Assembly: GCF_051622035.1 (NCBI RefSeq)
Contig: NC_135359.1
Location: 31,463,501-31,527,500, forward strand
Length of the DNA: 64,000 nucleotides
Source of the DNA: Arctopsyche grandis
Taxonomy: Eukaryota; Arthropoda; Insecta; Trichoptera; Hydropsychidae
Direction of reading: 5' to 3'
Shown here piece after piece: positions 47,149-64,000 of this stretch. The notes below the pieces were generated by a model. That model was not told the DNA's origin. It worked only from the letters and a program-made list of their open reading frames with translations, and searched no databases. Both the position numbers and the translations under genes were made by a program. Numbering within the stretch: the first letter of the stretch is position 1; each line of letters opens with the position of its first letter.

Positions 47149-47590
47149 GCCAGCAGCATAGCTCGTTCGTTAAGCTTCTGCTTAGTGTCGTCAGGTGCCG
47201 GGTTCGATCCCATGAGCTGACCTCGAGTGAAAAATGAATTTTTCAGAGTATGCTGCTGGTCAGACCTGGATTTGTGACTCCAGGTTGATCGTTTCCTATC
47301 AGAGTTTGCCAATTTTCTCTGATTTCATTGTTGAAACGGTTCCCGGTAAAAATTGGCTAAAAATCCTTCCTATATATGTACAATATGTCACCATTATTTG
47401 TGTTTGAATAATGTGCAATAAATAAGTTTGTGTACAATTTCATCGATGTCTCAATGATTTGCGAGTTTTTCAGTGACTTGTATAATGAATAAAAAATGCT
47501 GCAATATTTGTAATTGGCCAGGAAGGCGCATCGGGGTTGCCTGTAAGGCCTTCCTGGTATGTGTGTGAAAAGAATAAATAAAATAAATAA
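47149..47590 (+). mobile_element. tRNA-derived SINE, near full length
   Basis: This is the cleanest SINE here: CCAGCAGCATAGCTCGTTCG head, B box GGTTCGATCCC, body TTTCCTATCAGAGTTTGCC, tail CCAGGAAGGCGCATCGGG / GGCCTTCCTGG forming a short hairpin, then (AAAT)n. Confidence 0.8.
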
Positions 47591-51831: not shown

Positions 51832-52257
51832 TGTAACGTAGAGATTAGATGAGAGGCGCTCGTGGAACGATGGTTTACTAGCGCAGATCACCTGATCTCT
51901 CGTTCCCGCCAAAATGGCCTCCACGAATGAATCAGCCGTATGCAACGGCCAAAGGGATCATCTGACTCATTGACCAATGATTGTTGAGATATGTATGTAT
52001 GTGTATTGTGCCCAACGGGTATAAATATTGGGCGTTCTCGGCCTGGCATTCATTCCAGCCTGCAGCATCGCCGAGAGCACACGAATAAAGGTCAGTTCAT
52101 ACTTAACAGCACTGCACGGCTTCAGCACTGCACGACTCCGTTTCAAATATGTCATTTTATTACATTTCTATTCATATCTACCTACACGTCGTGGTCACGT
52201 CACGTTCACAGCACTTTGGCCGAGTGCAAGGCAAAATCGGCTTACTTATACATTACA
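51832..52257 (+). mobile_element. Candidate solo LTR
   Basis: It begins TGTAACGTAGAG and could end TATACATTACA. The middle holds GGGTATAAATATTGGGCG, a TATA box followed by an initiator-like TCTCGGCCTGGCATTCATTC, and ACGAATAAAG as a polyadenylation signal. This order is what an LTR has. No target duplication was found, so the ends are uncertain. Confidence 0.4.
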
Positions 52258-52314
52258 GGCCATGACGATACGGCGCAATATTGCTTACGTCGTATTGTCG
52301 AGTACTTACAATAT

Positions 52315-52760
52315 TTTATTTTATTTATTTTTATTTTACATATATACCAGGAAGGCCTTACAGGTAAATCCCAATGCGCCTTCCTGGCCAATTACAAATA
52401 CAAATACAGCATTTTTATTATAAGTCGTTGAATTGCGAGACACTGAAAAAACTCGCAAATTAACGAGACATCTATGAATTGTACATAAATTTTTATTGTA
52501 CATCAATCAAATTTTTCAAATAGTGGTGACATAGTAGGTAGGAAGGATTTTTAGCCAATTTTTTTTTCCGGGAACCGTTTCAACAATGAAATCAGAGAAA
52601 ATTGGCAAACTCTGATAGGAAACGATCAACCTGGAGTCACAAATCCAGGTCTGACCAACAGCATACTCTGAAAAATTCATTTTCATTCAGGGATAGAACC
52701 CGGCACCTTCTTGACGGTAAGCAGAAGCTTAACGTCCGAGCTATGCTGCTGGCTATATGA
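52315..52760 (-). mobile_element. tRNA-derived SINE, minus strand
   Basis: The reverse complement of the SINE at 47149-47590, with tail hairpin at 52348-52390, body GGCAAACTCTGATAGGAAAC and tRNA-like head ending CCAGCAGCATAGCTCGGACG inverted at 52738-52753. The B box is altered (GGTTCTATCCC). Confidence 0.8.
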
Positions 52761-53995
52761 ATGCATACACGTGCATTCGTAGCAACGCGTCAGAATACAA
52801 GTCAGCAAAAATTGTTCGACGTTTATCGAACGAAAAATTATGCAAAATCGCGTTGTTGTTGGAAGAAGAAGCTCAAGAAGGCAATAAAAAAGCACGAACG
52901 CGTTTTGATGTGCATCCCATGTTAAAAAATAGAAAAACCGAAGAAGAGTTTTGGACACTGTATAACGAGCTTGTGGATGATGGACAAATTTTTTTTAAAT
53001 ATTTCCGTAAAAAATTTAAATTTTTTTTAAATATTTTTGCGCCAAAACCATGTCGAAAGATTGAACAGCTGTCAACTGTCACTATCGATAATTGGTCCAA
53101 AATAGCAAAACGGCAGACTCATGGCACGTAATTCTCGTGTATATTTCCACGATGGCCAAAAAAATGGATACGATACGTTGACGGATGTTGCTGTAAGGTA
53201 TGAACAGGAAATGTCGGGTACTGCTGTAAGCCTGCCGTGGCGTAAACGTGACGGTTGGTATGAATATACCTATACAAAATGTACCAAAGAATACTTTTCG
53301 TACGGCCGGATACCTGCTGAAGTCGGTACGTGCTGACTAGGCATGAACAGACCTTAAACCGCCACTATAACCGTCCTGTGTCTTTCACTCCGATTCTGGA
53401 AGCCCCCTCTTCACGTCCACGCAACAGTACTAAAGAATTCTGTCCGTACTTGCAGGATTTGGGTCGTGCTGGATAGATATGAGCAGACCTATACCCGCGT
53501 AAACACGTTCGTTACAATATAAATTATTAATTTTATACCGTGATATTTTTTAAATATTTTTTCCTCAACTGAAAGTAGTAATTTTACTGTAGAAGATCAA
53601 GGTTGTTTTTATGTTTTTCTCGAAAACGTTTCAGCGTATTGGATTGACATTTCATATCTGCATCGAGACGCATCGCATTCCGATTTCGTCAGGGTGCTTA
53701 TGCGTTAAGTTGGTATGGACGGTGTATTCATCCCCACCACCATTATTTTTCTGCACGACACTACTATGCAGTTTGACATCTGTCATAAAGGAATATATTC
53801 GAAATTAAGACTATAATACGGTCGAAATCTGTTTTATATCAAAGAAAATTGATGCCAACTTATCCTTGTTCGTGTTTTTTGATTCATCTTCTTCTTTTTG
53901 ACATTTGCGAATCTCAAAAAGAAGGTTAGTCTTGTTTAATCTTAACACGATTATTAGTCTTGTTGTCGTGTTTCTGTCGAGTGGTGTTTTGCACA

Positions 53996-54808
53996 ATGGA
54001 GTGCAGACTTTGCCTTTGTACTGTTTCTGCAGAGTCTTCCGTCTCCATCCATAACGACCCTCATCCACTTGTGCAACGCATTTGGACCTGCTGTCACCTG
54101 CAGGTCAGTGACAGTTACTTTTAACCTTACGCTGTATCATTGTTCTCGGATATCATTACAACCTACCTTTTTCATTTGCAGGTTATGAAAGGTGACAGCT
54201 TACCAGATGTTATGTGTCTTTCGTGTGTCAAAAGTTTGGAATCGTTGAGCAGTTTTCGAGACATCTGTCTTAAAAGTGACGAAATATCGAAACTGAGATT
54301 AAATGATTGTCCGAATATCAAGCCAGAAGAAGTCATACTGGAAGATTTTATATGGGAGGATGCTGCTTCGTGTGATAACAAAACAAAAATGGTAGATGAT
54401 ATTGGAACTCCACTGACAGAATCTCTGTTACCGAAAACTGCAGATGAAATATGCTCCACACATTCTGAATCTAGTCATGAAATTAATTCCCTAGATTCAT
54501 CTCTCCATGTGCTTGGATTACAGTTGACACAACAAAATCGCACAGCCTTTGAATGTGGCGTTTGTTTAAAATCGTATAGATTAAAATCTAGCCTTGTGAG
54601 ACATTCCAAAACTCACATCGAAGAAAAGCCATTTAAATGTGACATTTGTTCAAAATCTTTTACTCGTCAATATAGCCTTGGGGTACATTTGAAAACGCAC
54701 ACTACAGAAAAACTGTACTATTGTGATATTTGTTTAAAATCATATACACGGAAGGGTAATTTACCAAGATATCATATGTGTACCAACACATATGAAGTTT
54801 CACACTGA
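53996..54808 (+). CDS. ZAD C2H2 zinc-finger protein, three fingers (copy 1)
   Basis: Two exons (53996-54103, 54182-54808) encode 244 residues. Exon 1, MECRLCLCTVSAESS ... RIWTCCHLQ, holds the first CxxC of a ZAD; exon 2 supplies the second (MCLSC), completing a four-cysteine zinc-binding dimerisation domain typical of insect transcription factors. An acidic linker follows (about residues 75-145). Then come two C2H2 fingers (CGVCLKSYRL...HSKTH, CDICSKSFTR...HLKTH) and a last CDICLKSYTRKGNLPRYHMC with His/Cys at its end. The product should bind DNA in the nucleus, probably as a dimer; no target is known. Three fingers is few for the class, and the paralogue at 61908 has four more between fingers two and three. 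Confidence 0.85.
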
Positions 54809-54837
54809 GCCATACAAATTTGGCTTACGCTACCATT

Positions 54838-55213
54838 AAGCCAGCAGTTTGGCTTAATGGTAGCGTATATATTTAGCACCACTTAGCACAATCGATGGTT
54901 CGATTCACCAAAAAAACTGCTGGTTAGATTTGGGGGTTTGTGACTCCAAATCGATCGTTTCTCTATCAGAGTTTGCCAATTTTATCTGATCATTGTTGAA
55001 ACGATTCTTGAAAATTTCCTGTGATCATTTCCTGTTTTCACAAAAATCTTGTATAATTTGTAAAAATTATGCACAAATCTGAAATCTATAGATGTCTCTA
55101 TAATTTCGTGTTTATTATGTGTATAAAAATAGTAATAATAATTGTGCACAAAATCTAAAAATAATCCATAGATGTCTCTATGATTATTATTTCTGTACTT
55201 GATTAATTATTGT
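54838..55213 (+). mobile_element. SINE cut at the duplication/deletion border
   Basis: The head AGTTTGGCTTAATGGTAGCG and B box GGTTCGATTC, then the shared body (CTATCAGAGTTTGCC). The tail stops at 55213, where the sequence jumps to the DNA found at 63460. The same SINE is complete at 58513-58985. A short inverted copy of its head precedes it (CGCTACCATTAAGCCA at 54827-54842). Confidence 0.7.
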
Positions 55214-55753
55214 TTAAAAATACATGAAAAAACTGATTGTCATTGTGAAATTTCATAATATATAATTTTGTAATTAAAAATATTTTATGTAATAAATATG
55301 TTTATATATTTTTTATAATTCCTGTTCCCTTGATTCAAAAGTCACCGAAAGTTATATACCGAAAATAAAATGCTGGTCATTTAATTTGTTGGCAAATTCA
55401 AATAACCTTTGTATAAATGTACATTGTAATCAGGTAATATAAAATAATAATAATAAAAATAAAGGTGCAGCAAACTAGGCACATGCCTAGGGCCCCCATT
55501 TTTCTTTTTTATTTTATATTGAAAAAATAAAAAAATAAATTTGGCTTTCTTTGAACTTACAAAATATTCCATATTCAACTAATGGAAGTAACAATACTGA
55601 TTGCAAAATATTATATTTTACGAGGCACGCAGGAAGTTGACTGTCAAATATCAACGAATCACGAATACAACTTGTAAAACAGCAAACTGTAATTTGGAAT
55701 TGTATTTTATATAAAACTAGCTGAGCCCGGCATGCGTTGCAACGCCACAATAA
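55213..55753. repeat. Segment repeated at the window end
   Basis: From TTTAAAAATACATGAAAAAA onward this is the same as 63460-64000, offset 8247, as far as the window reaches. It holds an AT-rich stretch and the start of a Helitron copy. I saw no coding gene in it. Confidence 0.85.
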
Positions 55754-55992
55754 CGAATGCAATTCCCGTTCCCGTTCCCATTTGTCGGAACAACGCAGGC
55801 AGCGAACACCTTGGTCGCGACGCGAAAACATTTGAAATTATAGCGTTGCAATGACACCCATTCCCGTTTTTTTTCATAGAAATCTTCCCGGACATGCATA
55901 CAACAAATCCTGAAAGTTCCATCGTAATCGGTTCAGTGGTTTAGGAGCCTATTCGAGACAAGCACACACAGACATTCATTTATATATATAGA
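55717..55992 (-). mobile_element. Non-autonomous Helitron, second copy
   Basis: On the minus strand it runs from TCTATATATATAAATGAATG to GCCGGGCTCAGCTAG, between A and T, and is a relative of 3453-3798 with a much shorter GGGAAC run. Confidence 0.75.
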
Positions 55993-56018
55993 TACTGCAG
56001 AAACACATGTATGAATGT

Positions 56019-56110
56019 CAACCAGCAGCGTGGACTAGTGGTTAGCATATATGCTTTCGAAAATAGTGGTCACGGGTTCGAGTATCATGGGTTGCTGCTG
56101 GCCACGAAAA
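56019..56110 (+). mobile_element. SINE head only
   Basis: ACCAGCAGCGTGGACTAGTGG, GGTCACGGGTTCGAGTATC and GCTGCTGGCCACG match the tRNA-like head of 38657. The normal body is missing, and a run of GTGACCAGTTTT-type repeats follows to about 56240. Confidence 0.6.
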
Positions 56111-56342
56111 AACTGGACCAGTTTTTTCGTGACCAATTTTCGGGTGTGACCAGTTTTATCGTAACCAGTTTTAGTGTGACGTGTGATCACGCGTGACCGA
56201 TCTAGAGCGACCGGTTGTCCTGTGACCGATTTACATTTGACTAGTAACACCGAACCGCAAAATACTATGGTTACCTGACAACTCGTTCACAGATTTTCCG
56301 TAAACCGATGATGCGCTCCAGGCATTACGTATACGGCCATCT

Positions 56343-56513
56343 CTTTCTCACCCCGTCTGTTCACCATGATCTTATTTACTATCCCATTACGTATGCAGCC
56401 ATCTCTTTCACAGACCGTCTGTTATCGGTGAAAAAATGGTCTGTGAAAGAGATGGCTGCATACGTAATGGCAGAGTAAACGAGATCATGGTGAACAGACG
56501 GGGTGAGAAAGAT
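56343..56513. repeat. Large hairpin at the edge of duplication copy 2
   Basis: CTTTCTCACCCCGTCTGTTC...CATCTCTTTCACAGACC pairs with its inverted copy over about 74 bp with four or five mismatches and a loop of about 20 nt. The right arm ends exactly where block copy 2 begins. Confidence 0.8.
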
Positions 56514-58888
56514 TATGCAAAATCGCGTTGTTGTTGGAAGAAGAAGCTCAAGAAGGCAATAAAAAAGCACGAACGCGTTTTGATGTGCATCCCATGTTAA
56601 AAAATAGAAAAACCGAAGAAGAGTTTTGGACACTGTATAACGAGCTTGTGGATGATGGACAAATTTTTTTTAAATATTTCCGTAAAAAATTTAAATTTTT
56701 TTTAAATATTTTTGCGCCAAAACCATGTCGAAAGATTGAACAGCTGTCAACTGTCACTATCGATAATTGGTCCAAAATAGCAAAACGGCAGACTCATGGC
56801 ACGTAATTCTCGTGTATATTTCCACGATGGCCAAAAAAATGGATACGATACGTTGACGGATGTTGCTGTAAGGTATGAACAGGAAATGTCGGGTACTGCT
56901 GTAAGCCTGCCGTGGCGTAAACGTGACGGTTGGTATGAATATACCTATACAAAATGTACCAAAGAATACTTTTCGTACGGCCGGATACCTGCTGAAGTCG
57001 GTACGTGCTGACTAGGCATGAACAGACCTTAAACCGCCACTATAACCGTCCTGTGTCTTTCACTCCGATTCTGGAAGCCCCCTCTTCACGTCCACGCAAC
57101 AGTACTAAAGAATTCTGTCCGTACTTGCAGGATTTGGGTCGTGCTGGATAGATATGAGCAGACCTATACCCGCGTAAACACGTTCGTTACAATATAAATT
57201 ATTAATTTTATACCGTGATATTTTTTAAATATTTTTTCCTCAACTGAAAGTAGTAATTTTACTGTAGAAGATCAAGGTTGTTTTTATGTTTTTCTCGAAA
57301 ACGTTTCAGCGTATTGGATTGACATTTCATATCTGCATCGAGACGCATCGCATTCCGATTTCGTCAGGGTGCTTATGCGTTAAGTTGGTATGGACGGTGT
57401 ATTCATCCCCACCACCATTATTTTTCTGCACGACACTACTATGCAGTTTGACATCTGTCATAAAGGAATATATTCGAAATTAAGACTATAATACGGTCGA
57501 AATCTGTTTTATATCAAAGAAAATTGATGCCAACTTATCCTTGTTCGTGTTTTTTGATTCATCTTCTTCTTTTTGACATTTGCGAATCTCAAAAAGAAGG
57601 TTAGTCTTGTTTAATCTTAACACGATTATTAGTCTTGTTGTCGTGTTTCTGTCGAGTGGTGTTTTGCACAATGGAGTGCAGACTTTGCCTTTGTACTGTT
57701 TCTGCAGAGTCTTCCGTCTCCATCCATAACGACCCTCATCCACTTGTGCAACGCATTTGGACCTGCTGTCACCTGCAGGTCAGTGACAGTTACTTTTAAC
57801 CTTACGCTGTATCATTGTTCTCGGATATCATTACAACCTACCTTTTTCATTTGCAGGTTATGAAAGGTGACAGCTTACCAGATGTTATGTGTCTTTCGTG
57901 TGTCAAAAGTTTGGAATCGTTGAGCAGTTTTCGAGACATCTGTCTTAAAAGTGACGAAATATCGAAACTGAGATTAAATGATTGTCCGAATATCAAGCCA
58001 GAAGAAGTCATACTGGAAGATTTTATATGGGAGGATGCTGCTTCGTGTGATAACAAAACAAAAATGGTAGATGATATTGGAACTCCACTGACAGAATCTC
58101 TGTTACCGAAAACTGCAGATGAAATATGCTCCACACATTCTGAATCTAGTCATGAAATTAATTCCCTAGATTCATCTCTCCATGTGCTTGGATTACAGTT
58201 GACACAACAAAATCGCACAGCCTTTGAATGTGGCGTTTGTTTAAAATCGTATAGATTAAAATCTAGCCTTGTGAGACATTCCAAAACTCACATCGAAGAA
58301 AAGCCATTTAAATGTGACATTTGTTCAAAATCTTTTACTCGTCAATATAGCCTTGGGGTACATTTGAAAACGCACACTACAGAAAAACTGTACTATTGTG
58401 ATATTTGTTTAAAATCATATACACGGAAGGGTAATTTACCAAGATATCATATGTGTACCAACACATATGAAGTTTCACACTGAGCCATACAAATTTGGCT
58501 TACGCTACCATTAAGCCAGCAGTTTGGCTTAATGGTAGCGTATATATTTAGCACCACTTAGCACAATCGATGGTTCGATTCACCAAAAAAACTGCTGGTT
58601 AGATTTGGGGGTTTGTGACTCCAAATCGATCGTTTCTCTATCAGAGTTTGCCAATTTTATCTGATCATTGTTGAAACGATTCTTGAAAATTTCCTGTGAT
58701 CATTTCCTGTTTTCACAAAAATCTTGTATAATTTGTAAAAATTATGCACAAATCTGAAATCTATAGATGTCTCTATAATTTCGTGTTTATTATGTGTATA
58801 AAAATAGTAATAATAATTGTGCACAAAATCTAAAAATAATCCATAGATGTCTCTATGATTATTATTTCTGTACTTGATTAATTATTGT
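56512..58888 (+). repeat. Segmental duplication block, copy 2
   Basis: Second copy of 52837-55213. Unlike copy 1 it continues past the block end into an intact SINE tail and zinc-finger remains. Confidence 0.9.
57671..58483 (+). CDS. ZAD C2H2 zinc-finger protein, three fingers (copy 2)
   Basis: Exons 57671-57778 and 57857-58483; the 244-residue product is identical to that of 53996-54808, as is the intron. ZAD (CRLC / CLSC), acidic linker, two C2H2 fingers and a final C2HC-like finger are all intact. The same perfect splice signals are present. Identity at silent sites and in non-coding DNA means either a very recent duplication or an assembly duplicate; it cannot reflect selection on the protein. 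Confidence 0.82.
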
Positions 58889-58985
58889 ATTCGATGTTTA
58901 TTGAACGTACTGTATACGTTGTCTGACCGTTCTCGTACACTCGTCGCATTGGAGCGATCTGTAATGACGAGTGTACATTGATTGT
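58513..58985 (+). mobile_element. SINE inserted in zinc-finger remains
   Basis: The same SINE as at 54838 but complete, with a third kind of tail (CACTCGTCGCATTGGAGCGA TCTGTAATGACGAG) before TAATAAAATAAAT. Zinc-finger codons resume right after it. Confidence 0.7.
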
Positions 58986-59240
58986 AATAAAATAAATATG
59001 ACATTTGTTTAAAGTCATTTCTTCGTAAATGGATTCTCGTTGAATATGAGAAATCTCATGCTTGGATTAATTCATGCAAGTGTTTCATTTGTTTAAAATT
59101 ATTTACTCAAAAAGTCATATTGATACACACATGAAGGCTCATACTACATATATTAAAACCACACAGATGCAATATTTTTTACAACCATTCGTTCTAAAAA
59201 GTCGTTATATTTATTATTGTAATATCTGTAAAATATTTAA
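58973..59240 (+). pseudogene. Zinc-finger remains beyond the SINE
   Basis: One frame reads KYDICLKSFLRKWILVEYEK SHAW and then CKCFICLKLFTQKVILIHT, followed by a stop. The first ligand of the first finger is Tyr instead of Cys and the linkers are worn. They match the out-of-frame finger after the stop of the gene at 61908, so they are the old 3' end of the two copies' ancestor. Confidence 0.65.
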
Positions 59241-59289
59241 ATAAATAAATATTATCAAAAACCAAACATGCAAACCGATTTCAACAAAA

Positions 59290-59700
59290 CAAATTTAGGT
59301 GATAATTGAAAAAAAAAACACATGGATAAGCCTTGTAAAGAGGACACCTATGTATAAGGGAGGTACCACTTCTGGTCAACTTGAAAATTTGAAAAAAAAA
59401 TCGATAAGCATTTCAGTAACCGATACTAAGTTTCAATTCCATAGGACTAACGGTGTTCAAAAAATACACAGACACGCACACCCATTTTTTCTAGATCATG
59501 AAAAGGTAATCAGTAGTCACCGGAGCCTGAGGGGGCCGTGTATTGTTCAAAGGTTGTAAATGCATTGTTAAAGGTTTGCCGAACAATGGATAGCACTGTG
59601 ACTATCCTACCTCTAGTAATCAGTGATCGATTCTGAGTTTTAATTTTCTCGTGATCACAAAACTTCATATATTGTTACTACATATATAGATAAAGTAAAT
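59290..59700. repeat. Dispersed 'acttccggt'-family repeat
   Basis: CACTTCTGGTCAAC, GTAACCGATACTAAGTTTCA and the end CTCGTGATCACAAAACTTCA TATATTGTTACTAC match pieces at 28555-28795 and 15330-15535. Confidence 0.5.
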
Positions 59701-61528
59701 ATCCGAAATCTCGAATAGCACACCTGTAACCTAGCACTGCAGGCACGACAGATAAAGGCGAAAATAAAGATAGCGGTGCGAATTTTAGGCAAGAAAATGA
59801 CACGTCCTAATGTAACAACTATCGACTGTCGTTTCGACAGCCAATGGTCAACTAAAATTGCCGATAGCCGGAAACAGTGAGGGTACATTAATAAAGGAAG
59901 GGCAGGTAGTTGCATTCTTCTCCGAGTACTGTGAATGCTATCGTTTTTTATTTCGTTCTCTACTTATTTTCAAACATGTTTCGAAAATGTGAAACTATTT
60001 TTTTAAGAGTCATAATAGAAATATAATACAAAGGCAATGCGTCTTCGCCTGATGAGTAAAATTTGTCGAGCATAGAAAGTAATCTAAAATTTTGTAGCAA
60101 GCACCTTTGGCGTTCTAATTTAAAATTAAAATAATTTAAAAAATGGCAAAATCTAATTTAAAAACATCAAACCGCACCCTAATTTACTTGCCCGACGGTG
60201 GTGTCCCCCCCCCCCCCTAAAAGCAGCGCTGCCTCTGATGAAGAAACTTTAATTTGACGATACTTGGAGACCAGCTCCAGTATTCTTCCGGGGTGGAGTG
60301 AGGAAGCCTGGCCTGTCTTCGTCCCGAAGGCAGAAAACGTAGCCACGCGGGTTTGGTATCATAACCTCAAGCACACGTGCTACCATTGTATACGAACTCC
60401 CCCCTGCTTGCTCTCTGTACATTTAACCTAAAAATACGGTTGATCACATACAGATTTACAACCTGTTTTTCATTATATACAATCTCCCTCCATTTTCCAT
60501 CTAGCAACATCACGCTTACATACGCACACGGTACGAGAGAGGGAGACAGAGCAGAGCCATCATCAGCAGAGACCAGACCACAGACGACGAAGGAAGACAC
60601 CGTGAGGAAAGCCACTCCACCCTTACCGCTGAGCAACTCTACAAACATCATGACATCAGGTGGCATCTCGATTGAGAACCCCTGGCGTCCGTACAACATA
60701 TTTAGGGAGTTGCAGGAAGCTCACCTCTCTTTACAATTGAAAACTGTTGTAAAGGTTTTCACAACGCTTTAAACTTAAAGTTTCATTGTAGAGATCCAAG
60801 CATTTGGAATCTGTCTACATTTTTTGGAAATGTGGAAATGTGTATGAGGTTGAGTTAAACAATTTTTTTTAATTCACCGTATAATTTTATTTTTTTGCCA
60901 TATTTTGTATGAAATGTTTTTATAAAAATAAGAGAGGGGGCTGTGCAAAATTATTTGCACGCAGGTGAATAACCATAGAAAACATGGAAATTTCACAATA
61001 ATGTAGCATCTGGTTGTTAGGGGACAAAGGCGATATAGTGAAATGCAACTCACTGAACCACAGGGAACTAATGGCTTCCGCGTCACATGACAAGATGACA
61101 ACTCTACCATTCTTCGACTCATGCATGCCATACTAATCATTCATACATGGATTCTTCTAGGCTACAAAGCTAATTCCCATACGAATACCATTATTACTAA
61201 AAGTCAGAATTCAATCAAATCAAAAATTTACGGAAAAATTCTAATGAAATTCTAAGGCTTGTGTTTTACTGGTAAGTATTTTTGTCAGTATTTAAATATG
61301 AAAAGTCAGTATTTATAAAACGCCAGTATTCATCGTTCAGTTTACAAGTAATCAGTATAAATAATAAAATGTAAATATTTATATTAAATGGTCAGTATTT
61401 AGGTTAAATGATAAGTTTAATTTTGCCGAATGCTCGGTATTACTTTTTTTGGTTGGGATTAAGGTTGATACGATCTTAATAGACAATTAATTCCCTGCAA
61501 CACGCATTGCTATTTGTTCTGATAAATG
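59701..61528. other. No intact gene seen
   Basis: ORFs here resemble nothing I know. A C-run sits at about 60207-60219 and the segment at 60995-61200 resembles 4528-4710. From 61268 on, TCAGTATTTAAAT-like strings recur and an inverted partner (AATACTGGCCATTTAATTTG) is at 61753, suggesting a decayed MITE. Confidence 0.35.
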
Positions 61529-61638
61529 AAGGGCTGAAAACCAGACTTGTACAAGTGACATTTTTAAAAAAATCTGGTTTAAGTGCTAAAATAATAGCAT
61601 ATATGTCATTTGTACCAGTCTGGTTTTCAGCCCGTCAA
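61529..61638. mobile_element. Hairpin element
   Basis: GGGCTGAAAACCAGACTTGT...GTGACAT and its inverted copy (ATGTCATTTGTACCAGTCTG...AGCCC) pair with about three mismatches over 31 bp. It probably is a short MITE. Confidence 0.6.
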
Positions 61639-61812
61639 ATGTGATTTTTATACTGTCCATTTGTTATTTATACCATTTGACATATAATAATAAAATACTG
61701 ACCATTTTGTAATAAAATACTGGTAGAAAACTGATTTGTATACTTACCGAAATTGATTAAAATACTGGCCATTTAATTTGTTGCCAAAGAAAATTGACAA
61801 CAATTGATTCAC

Positions 61813-61846
61813 CTTCTTTTTGACATTTGCAAATGTCAAAAAGAAG
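61813..61846. promoter_or_regulatory. Perfect 34-bp palindrome upstream of the 7-finger gene
   Basis: CTTCTTTTTGACATTTG followed directly by its exact complement reversed. It ends 61 bp before the ATG at 61908. The two copies at 53891-53924 and 57566-57599 keep it with two changes in the right half. Confidence 0.6.
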
Positions 61847-61907
61847 TTGAAGTCAAACGTTTATTAGACTTGTTTTGTCGTTTTTCTGTCGAGTGGTGTT
61901 CTACACA

Positions 61908-63060
61908 ATGGAGTGCAGACTTTGCCTTTGTTCTGTTTCTGCCGAGTCTTCCGTCTCCATCCATGACGACCCTGATCCACTGGTGCAACGCATTTGGACC
62001 TGCTGTCACCTGCAGGTCAGTGACAGTTACTTTTTTTTAACCCTATGCTGTATCATTGTTCTCAGGTATCATTACAACCTACCTTTTTCATTTGCAGGTT
62101 ATGAAAGGTGACAGCTTACCAGATGTTATGTGTCTTTCGTGTGTCAAAAGTCTGGTATCGTTGAGCAGTTTTCGAGACATCTGTCTTAAAAGTGACGAAA
62201 TGTCGAAACTGAGATTAAACGATTGTCCGAAAATCAAGCCGGAAGAAGTCATATTGGAAGATTTAATATGGGAGGATGTTACTTCGTCTGGTAACAGAAC
62301 AAAAACGGTACATGATATTGAAACTCCACCGACAGAATCTCTATTACCAAAAGCTGCAGATGAAATATGCTCCACACATTCTGAATCAAGTCATGAAATT
62401 AATTCCCTAGATCCGTCTGTCCCTATGTTTGGATTACAGTTAACACAACAAAATCGTACACCTTTTGAATGTGGCGTTTGTTTGAAGTCGTTTACTTTAA
62501 AACCCAGCCTTGTGAGACATTCCAGAACTCATATGGGGGAAAAGCCATTTAAATGCGACATTTGTTCAAAATCTTTTACTCGTCAATATAGCCTTGCAGT
62601 ACATTTGAAATCTCACACTGAAAAAAACCCGCATAAATGTAACATTTGTTTAAAAATATTTACACAAAAAGACGATCTTGTTATGCATCGGAAATCTCAC
62701 CCTATCGTCCAACCGTTCAAATGCGACATCTGTTCAAAATCTTTTACTCGTAAATACGGCCTTACAATACATTCGAAATCTCACACTGGAAACAACCCGT
62801 ATACATGTAACGTTTGTTTAAAAACATTTCCCGTAAAAAATTATCTTAGACGACATTTGGAATCTCACTCTGGTGACAAGCCGTATAAATGTGACATTTG
62901 TTTAAAAACATTTGCTGCAGAAACTTACCTTAAACAACATTCGAAATCTCACTCTAAAGATAAACTGTATCAATGTGATATTTGTTTAAAATCATATACA
63001 CGAAGAGGTAATCTACCAAGATATCATGTATGTACCAACACGTATGAAGTTTCACACTGA
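61908..63060 (+). CDS. ZAD C2H2 zinc-finger protein, seven fingers
   Basis: Exons 61908-62015 and 62098-63060 encode 356 residues. The ZAD is split by the intron as in the copies (CRLC in MECRLCLCSVSAESS, then MCLSC). After an acidic linker come seven fingers: CGVCLKSFTL, CDICSKSFTRQY, CNICLKIFTQ, CDICSKSFTRKY, CNVCLKTFPV, CDICLKTFAA and a last CDICLKSYTR ending in Cys. Linkers are of the TGEKP type but degenerate (GEKPFKC, GNNPYTC, GDKPYKC). The protein is about 85-90% like the 3-finger copies by eye, apart from four inserted fingers. It should be a nuclear DNA-binding factor. This is the best-preserved member and likely the functional one. Confidence 0.88.
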
Positions 63061-63165
63061 GCCATACAAATGTAACATTTGTTCAAAACCATTTCTTCAT
63101 AAGTGGATTCTTGGTGAATACATGAAATCTTATGCTTGAATTAAATTGCACAAGTTTTTCATTTG
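63061..63165 (+). pseudogene. Out-of-frame extra finger after the stop
   Basis: One frame over from the stop the DNA reads EPYKCNICSKPFLHKWILGE YMKSY, a zinc finger with good cysteines and a lost histidine. The stop at 63058 therefore lies in what was once a longer finger array. Confidence 0.65.
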
Positions 63166-63170
63166 CTTAA

Positions 63171-63228
63171 CCGTTTGCCCGCGGTCGTCTTCTATGGTAG
63201 CTTTGCGCGACAAGTCTGTAGCGCGGCT
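63171..63228. mobile_element. Truncated TTAA MITE family 1
   Basis: After TTAA (63167-63170) it reads CCGTTTGCCCGCGGTCGTCT and follows the end of 23177-23662 for about 58 bp, then departs. Confidence 0.65.
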
Positions 63229-63459
63229 GTTGATTTCATATTTCAATTTTCTAAATTCAAGACAATTTCTTTCTGCCAATCCATTTTCTACCTTCTATTT
63301 TTCCCATGGTTATCAAACGGAGACATTCGTATTTTGGACCCCGTATCATGTGTGTGAGTAACAAGTTGCCTAGCTCTCCCTATCATGTCGAGGACAGCTT
63401 CATTTGATACTGTTTTGGTCCACGGCATCTTCAGCATACGCCTGTAGACCCAAACAAAT

Positions 63460-64000
63460 TTTAAAAATACATGAAAAAACTGATTGTCATTGTGAAATTT
63501 CATAATATATAATTTTGTAATTAAAAATATTTTATGTAATAAATATGTTTATATATTTTTTATAATTCCTGTTCCCTTGATTCAAAAGTCACCGAAAGTT
63601 ATATACCGAAAATAAAATGCTGGTCATTTAATTTGTTGGCAAATTCAAATAACCTTTGTATAAATGTACATTGTAATCAGGTAATATAAAATAATAATAA
63701 TAAAAATAAAGGTGCAGCAAACTAGGCACATGCCTAGGGCCCCCATTTTTCTTTTTTATTTTATATTGAAAAAATAAAAAAATAAATTTGGCTTTCTTTG
63801 AACTTACAAAATATTCCATATTCAACTAATGGAAGTAACAATACTGATTGCAAAATATTATATTTTACGAGGCACGCAGGAAGTTGACTGTCAAATATCA
63901 ACGAATCACGAATACAACTTGTAAAACAGCAAACTGTAATTTGGAATTGTATTTTATATAAAACTAGCTGAGCCCGGCATGCGTTGCAACGCCACAATAA
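63460..64000. repeat. Second copy of 55213-55753, runs off the window
   Basis: The same sequence as 55213-55753, including the end of a minus-strand Helitron from 63964. Its left border is where the deletion in the first copy would rejoin. Confidence 0.85.

What the first reader, a model, noticed from the sequence alone, without database searches (positions are those of the whole stretch)
52837..64000. Duplicated block whose edge coincides exactly with a 4.57-kb deletion junction
Block 52837-55213 equals 56512-58888. Where that identity stops (55213), identity with 63460 onward starts at the same base. Copy 1 therefore reads as copy 2 with 58889-63459 removed, joined at a 1-bp overlap (T). 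Copy 2 keeps the intact SINE tail and older finger remains, so it is the ancestral arrangement. The removed piece holds the entire 7-finger ZAD gene. Either this is a recent duplication followed by a deletion, or a deletion haplotype and a normal haplotype were placed end to end by the assembler.
Basis: seen in the sequence. Interest (0 to 1): 0.8.

Follow-up and report, generated by a model that had tools for sequence, protein, structure and literature searches.

The report
Recent two-piece duplication beside zinc-finger genes
A probably insect chromosome carries a very recent extra 3.7-kb insert made of two copied neighbouring pieces joined together, which adds a second identical copy of a small zinc-finger gene; this is a known kind of copying accident, and the assembly looks more likely right than wrong here.

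Summary
A1 52837-55213 equals A2 56512-58888 (2377 bp, 0 differences). C1 55213-56512 equals C2 63460-64759 (1300 bp, 0 differences). The order is L-A1-C1-A2-U-C2-R, with U (58889-63459) found once. Transposon copies and paralogous genes show L|A1, A2|U and C2|R are old; the joins at 55213 and 56512 are new. The ancestor was L-A-U-C-R and the net gain is 3675 bp. No gene was lost: the 7-finger ZAD gene remains once, and an intact 244-aa ZAD gene now exists twice. This is the DUP-NML-DUP pattern known from human rearrangements; one event with two template switches explains it at least as simply as duplication then deletion, but cannot be told from it. Each join has a 1-bp overlap, which about 28% of random joins show, so microhomology is not shown. 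An assembly artefact is less likely (no N in 153.5 kb; the second join shares 1 bp) but not excluded without reads. The lack of differences speaks against two haplotypes, not against false duplication within one haplotype. Species not identified.

The parts
52315..52754 (.).
   Evidence: in the fetched transposon copies, sequence matching 52200-52314 directly adjoins sequence matching about 52755 onward; repeat match 47149-47587 vs 52753-52315
52755..53357 (+). Remnant of a high-copy DNA transposon; runs unbroken across the left edge of A1, so L|A1 is native
   Evidence: 5 of 5 fetched genomic copies (L006-L010) align from 52749-52782 to about 53355-53361 at 95-96%; further copies. The label PIF/Harbinger-like is recalled from the peptide; Pfam gave no hit for 52733-53128
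52837..55213 (+). Block A1 (2377 bp), first copy
   Evidence: identical to 56512-58888
53996..54808 (+). ZAD zinc-finger gene, copy 1: exon 53996-54103, intron 54104-54181, exon 54182-54808; 244 aa, zf-AD plus about 3 fingers (the last one degenerate, counted by eye)
   Evidence: PF07776 E 3.7e-10, PF00096 over cut-off; CDS identical to copy 2. The exon model is a prediction; no transcripts seen
55213..55213 (.). Novel junction J1 (A to C), 1-bp overlap T, about 395 bp into a ~495-bp SINE-like insert
55213..56512 (+). Block C1 (1300 bp), first copy
   Evidence: identical to 63460-64759
56269..56512 (.). Palindromic MITE-like element (label recalled), truncated in its right arm
   Evidence: match to genomic copies L018 and L019 stops at 56512 (2 of 2)
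56512..56512 (.). Novel junction J2 (C to A), 1-bp overlap A
56512..58888 (+). Block A2 (2377 bp), second copy
   Evidence: transposon matches begin only at 56507 in 5 of 5 copies
57671..58483 (+). ZAD zinc-finger gene, copy 2, 244 aa, CDS identical to copy 1
58495..58990 (.). SINE-like insert in the 3' part of the ZAD gene; complete here, truncated in copy 1
   Evidence: homology to paralogs G2 and G3 ends at about 58494 and resumes at about 58990
58889..63459 (+). Segment U (4571 bp), single copy, the copy-neutral middle part
   Evidence: one full-length match in the assembly
61908..63060 (+). Paralogous 7-finger ZAD gene (G2), 356 aa, open throughout
   Evidence: dN/dS 0.35 against the A gene over 244 shared codons
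63460..64000 (+). Block C2 (second copy), continuing outside the window to 64759
   Evidence: Outside the window, in the same numbering: complete MITE-like element 64516-64832, then a further ZAD paralog G3 (exon 1 ends at 65070)

Best explanation
A real, very recent complex local duplication of the DUP-NML-DUP kind. From an ancestral order L-A-U-C-R, a repair or replication event ran through A, jumped forward over U into C, ran through C into the right arm of a palindromic element, jumped back to the start of A, and ran on through A-U-C-R. The product is L-A1-C1-A2-U-C2-R, a direct insertion of 3675 bp with two novel joins, at 55213 and 56512. SHOWN: the structure in the assembly, the identities, and which adjacencies are old and which new (U|C2 by elimination). 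INFERRED: that the assembly is right here, and that both joins arose together (template switching, FoSTeS/MMBIR-like) and not in two steps. The predicted effect is a second, identical, intact copy of a small ZAD zinc-finger gene with 1159 bp of the same upstream DNA and a new 3' flank; no gene was lost.
For: 0 differences in 2377 bp and in 1300 bp. L|A1 native: 5 of 5 fetched transposon copies run across 52837, while matches to copy 2 begin only at 56507. C2|R native: the palindromic element is complete at 64516-64832 (98.4% to L018) while C1's copy stops at 56512 (2 of 2 copies). A2|U native: paralog homology lies on both sides of the insert. U found once, A and C twice. No N in 153.5 kb. The same two-join geometry is reported in three directly oriented DUP-NML-DUP patients in PMC6902434 (section 17 read; passages). 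There 9 of 50 carriers had the DUP-NML-DUP array pattern against 33 of 50 single duplications; of the nine, three had this geometry, one was two separate tandem duplications, and five involved inversions or an inverted haplotype.
Against: The 1-bp overlaps are what chance gives (28% of random joins here have exactly 1 bp), and there are no inserted bases. The three human cases showed Alu homology, microhomologies or insertions at their joins; none of these is seen here. A tandem duplication followed quickly by a deletion leaves the same sequence. No reads, depth or second individual could be examined. Both sides of J2 lie in high-copy elements. Perfect identity of the copies is also what a false duplication within one haplotype ('homotype') would give.
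Confidence: 0.5

Rival explanations
1. Two steps: an 8248-bp tandem duplication of A-U-C (join J2), then a 4571-bp deletion of U inside the first copy (join J1).
For: Gives exactly the observed sequence. Tandem duplications with later internal deletions are described in flies (recalled; the paper was not held).
Against: Needs a second, independent large deletion before a single base changed in either copy over 3677 compared bp. No undeleted first copy of U is in this assembly.
Confidence: 0.24
2. Assembly artefact: a deletion haplotype (L-A-C-R) and a normal haplotype (L-A-U-C-R) were placed end to end, or sequence of one haplotype was placed twice at a contig end.
For: [quoted passage not shown] J2 joins two high-copy elements. 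A deletion allele alone would explain J1. Identical copies fit the homotype kind.
Against: J2 is in neither supposed haplotype and has only a 1-bp overlap, no basis for an assembler to join contigs (my judgement). There is no N run in 153.5 kb, whereas a legend in that paper describes tandem homotype duplications at contig ends as having a gap between the copies. Against the heterotype kind: 0 differences in 3677 bp would have probability about 0.025 at 0.1% heterozygosity and about 1e-8 at 0.5% (the real heterozygosity is not known).
Confidence: 0.17
3. Extrachromosomal circle: pieces A and C were ligated into a 3675-bp circle (both joins made at once) that re-entered the locus by homologous recombination in A or C.
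For: A circle of A+C recombining with A or C gives exactly this product without any further scar (inference).
Against: Nothing specific to a circle is seen, and it needs more steps than template switching.
Confidence: 0.07

Closest known systems
DUP-NML-DUP complex rearrangements at human PLP1 (PMC6902434; section 17 and passages seen)
   Same: Two directly repeated duplicated segments separated by a copy-neutral segment; two joins in the same geometry in three patients
   Different: Here kilobases, much smaller than the examples in the passages seen; on a reference assembly and not in a patient; no homology, microhomology beyond chance or inserted bases at the joins, which those three cases had; not observed as a new mutation
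Tandem duplication with later internal deletion (Drosophila; recalled, not read)
   Same: Same end sequence, recent, near-identical copies
   Different: Requires two independent events; no intermediate seen
False duplications in assemblies, heterotype and homotype (PMC8081667; passages seen)
   Same: Local direct identical or near-identical blocks in a primary assembly; identity fits the homotype kind
   Different: No gap and base-exact joins; no allelic differences between the copies (against the heterotype kind only)
ZAD-ZNF gene clusters of insects (PMC7655104; passages seen)
   Same: Neighbouring ZAD genes with a shared exon/intron structure, of the sort said to arise by segmental duplication
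   Different: Here the latest duplication has both joins still exact

Membership tests
DUP-NML-DUP complex duplication | Two segments present twice, separated by a segment present once | tested here: met
   A twice, C twice, U once, in the assembly; not confirmed by depth
DUP-NML-DUP complex duplication | Direct orientation with joins distal-of-A to proximal-of-C and distal-of-C to proximal-of-A | tested here: met
DUP-NML-DUP complex duplication | Both joins arose in one event | not testable with these tools
   Needs population or parent-offspring data
Template switching (FoSTeS/MMBIR) | Microhomology beyond chance or templated insertions at the joins | tested here: not met
   1 bp at each join; 28% of random joins show exactly this; no insertions. 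So it works like a template-switch product, but membership is not shown
False heterotype duplication (assembly) | Copies differ like two haplotypes | tested here: not met
   0 differences in 3677 bp; the heterozygosity of the individual is unknown
False heterotype duplication (assembly) | Half read depth over each copy | not testable with these tools
   No reads available
False homotype duplication (assembly) | Identical copies | tested here: met
   0 differences in 3677 bp
False homotype duplication (assembly) | Contig end, with a gap between the copies after scaffolding | tested here: not met
   No N in 153.5 kb around the locus
ZAD-ZNF genes | N-terminal zf-AD domain followed by C2H2 fingers | tested here: met
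   PF07776 over its cut-off in both spliced proteins, plus PF00096 and PF13465

The most novel reading that the evidence does not exclude
A fork stalled in the hairpin-forming arm of a young palindromic MITE-like element (the break lies 85 bp past its centre) switched template twice. That would make such elements a driver of one-step, gene-adding duplications in this ZAD zinc-finger cluster: a single event copies one zinc-finger gene while leaving its neighbour at one copy.
Probability: 0.15. Interest if true: 0.5.

Novelty: new member of a known kind. Interest (0 to 1): 0.3.

Why it matters
[quoted passage not shown] It shows how 'deletion in one copy' can be misread when nothing was ever deleted. 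If it is an artefact, it warns that a spurious ZAD gene sits in the assembly. Either way the two junctions are cheap markers to test.

Tried and rejected
Chance or ancient repeats: rejected, 0 differences in 2377 and 1300 bp with single-base limits.

U as an insertion between A and C in copy 2 (A-C ancestral): rejected, because homology to paralogs G2 and G3 resumes beyond the SINE-like insert inside U, so A2|U is old.

Transposition of the block: rejected as the main cause. The edges lie inside repeated elements, not at their ends.

Homologous recombination between repeats: rejected, the joins share 1 bp only; BLAST extends J2 by 5 further bp with one mismatch.

Microhomology as evidence: rejected, not more than chance.

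Rfam: 0 hits in the window at gathering thresholds. Species: not identified. Contigs numbered up to C13 appear in the hits. A COX1-like stretch on C1 looks hemipteran to me (recalled; the PDB comparison did not help to place it). The deathwatch beetle came up by size but has 32 scaffolds and 144 contigs against 189 contigs here. Diaphorina citri was considered, but the assemblies described (474 Mb with many unplaced scaffolds; 267-283 Mb for three others) do not fit clearly.

Number of ZAD genes in the genome: not obtained. Paper searches were seen as listings; of the papers listed, passages or sections were read only from PMC6902434, PMC7655104, PMC8081667, PMC4503668 (nothing useful), PMC12504945 and PMC11659978. 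The output was cut in the middle; the rows used here were visible.

Full report
OBSERVATION. Block A1 (52837-55213) equals A2 (56512-58888) over 2377 bp with 0 differences and no possible one-base extension. From 55213 the sequence equals 63460 onward to the window end. The window is G000:C5:31463501-31527500 of a 475.7-Mb assembly in 189 contigs. I fetched the DNA beyond the edge. The second identity, C1 55213-56512 against C2 63460-64759, is 1300 bp with 0 differences, and it stops at base 56512, exactly where A2 begins. The full order is therefore L-A1-C1-A2-U-C2-R, with U = 58889-63459.

COPY NUMBER. In whole-assembly searches, A is found twice full-length, C twice and U once. Further matches to A are a transposon part of about 520 bp and the neighbouring paralogs. 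Further matches to C are its palindromic element and short pieces. Further matches to U are a dispersed repeat, the paralogs and short pieces. The tool scores only its best candidates (40 in each of these searches), so repeat counts are lower bounds. These are counts in the assembly, not read depth.

WHICH JOINS ARE OLD. L|A1 is old: in 5 of 5 fetched genomic copies of the transposon (L006-L010) the alignment to copy 1 begins at 52749-52782 and runs through 52837 at 95-96%, whereas alignments to copy 2 begin only at 56507, 5 of 5. C2|R is old: the palindromic MITE-like element is complete in C2 (64516-64832, 98.4% to L018), but C1's copy matches L018 and L019 only to 56512, 2 of 2. A2|U is old: in copy 2 a SINE-like insert of about 495 bp lies between stretches homologous to the 3' part of two paralogous ZAD genes, and the homology resumes at about 58990, inside U. 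A1 breaks off about 395 bp into that insert. U|C2 is old by elimination; I did not test it directly. So J1 and J2 are the only new joins and the ancestor was L-A-U-C-R. The net change is +3675 bp.

GENES. The A block holds a complete predicted ZAD gene: exons 53996-54103 and 54182-54808, 244 aa, zf-AD E 3.7e-10. Copy 2 has the identical CDS. U holds the paralog with 7 fingers (the last one degenerate, counted by eye; Pfam zf-H2C2_2 gives 6 stretches), 356 aa. Over 244 shared codons (the 112 extra codons of the longer gene left out) the two paralogs differ with dS 0.197, dN 0.069 and dN/dS 0.35, so they look like genes under constraint. A third ZAD paralog follows C2. Nothing was lost; one gene was gained. 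Expression was not tested.

MECHANISM. A product in which two segments are doubled around a single-copy segment, in direct order, is called DUP-NML-DUP. In PMC6902434 (passages; section 17 read), 9 of 50 PLP1 copy-gain carriers had this array pattern and 33 of 50 a single duplication. Of the nine, three had the two joins in the geometry seen here, which the authors attribute to template switches; one was two separate tandem duplications, and five involved inversions or an inverted haplotype. The three had Alu homology, microhomologies or insertions at their joins, which ours lack. By parsimony I prefer one event with two switches, but the sequence cannot separate it from tandem duplication plus deletion, or from a two-piece circle that re-entered. 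The joins carry a 1-bp overlap each and no insertions. In random joins drawn from this DNA (20,000 draws, pairs under 200 bp apart dropped), 28% had exactly 1 bp and 55% none, so this is no evidence for microhomology. J2 lies in the right arm of a near-perfect palindromic element of 317 bp, 85 bp past its centre. A hairpin stalling a fork is attractive but untested.

REAL OR ARTEFACT. For real: no N in 153.5 kb around the locus, whereas a legend in PMC8081667 (passages) describes tandem homotype duplications at contig ends as having a gap between the copies; and J2 exists in neither supposed haplotype and shares only 1 bp. Against a join of two haplotypes: 0 differences in 3677 bp would have probability 0.025 at 0.1% heterozygosity and 1e-8 at 0.5%; the organism's heterozygosity is not known, so this is conditional. 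Against real: no reads were available, both sides of J2 are high-copy elements, and identical copies are just what a false duplication within one haplotype would show. I put real at about 0.8.

AGE. With 0 of 3677 differences, the 95% upper limit on divergence between the copies is about 0.08%. Gene conversion could lower the apparent age.

CONTEXT. [quoted passage not shown] in D. melanogaster 37 of 91 lie in 13 clusters, many likely from segmental duplication (PMC7655104, passages). This locus looks like an ordinary but unusually fresh instance of such growth.

Noticed in passing
L028:1501-2841 (G000:C1:36084329-36085669): A long COX1 stretch on a 42.7-Mb contig, free of stops under the invertebrate mitochondrial code: a very recent nuclear insertion of mitochondrial DNA, or mitochondrial sequence wrongly joined into C1.
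   Followed up: partly
64516-64832 in window numbering (beyond the window end); copies listed on C1-C12: A 317-bp near-perfect palindromic MITE-like family; the 38 other scored places are 96-99% identical to the query part (85-93% in the reverse-arm rows): young and apparently recently active.
   Followed up: partly
86102-86744 vs 89664-90302 (beyond the window, same numbering): Another recent local duplication in the cluster, 643 bp at 99.2%.
   Followed up: no
-24586..-24014 vs -22489..-21920; 105031-105388 vs 110096-110455; 102076-102437 vs 109152-109512 (same numbering): Further local repeats at 98-99%, one of them inverted.
   Followed up: no
about 73000-102400 (beyond the window, same numbering): Many mutual matches, on both strands, to the finger-coding DNA of the window genes: apparently a larger zinc-finger cluster downstream (not annotated).
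   Followed up: no
54104-54181 and 62016-62097: The ZAD paralogs share a short predicted intron at the same position inside the ZAD-coding part.
   Followed up: yes
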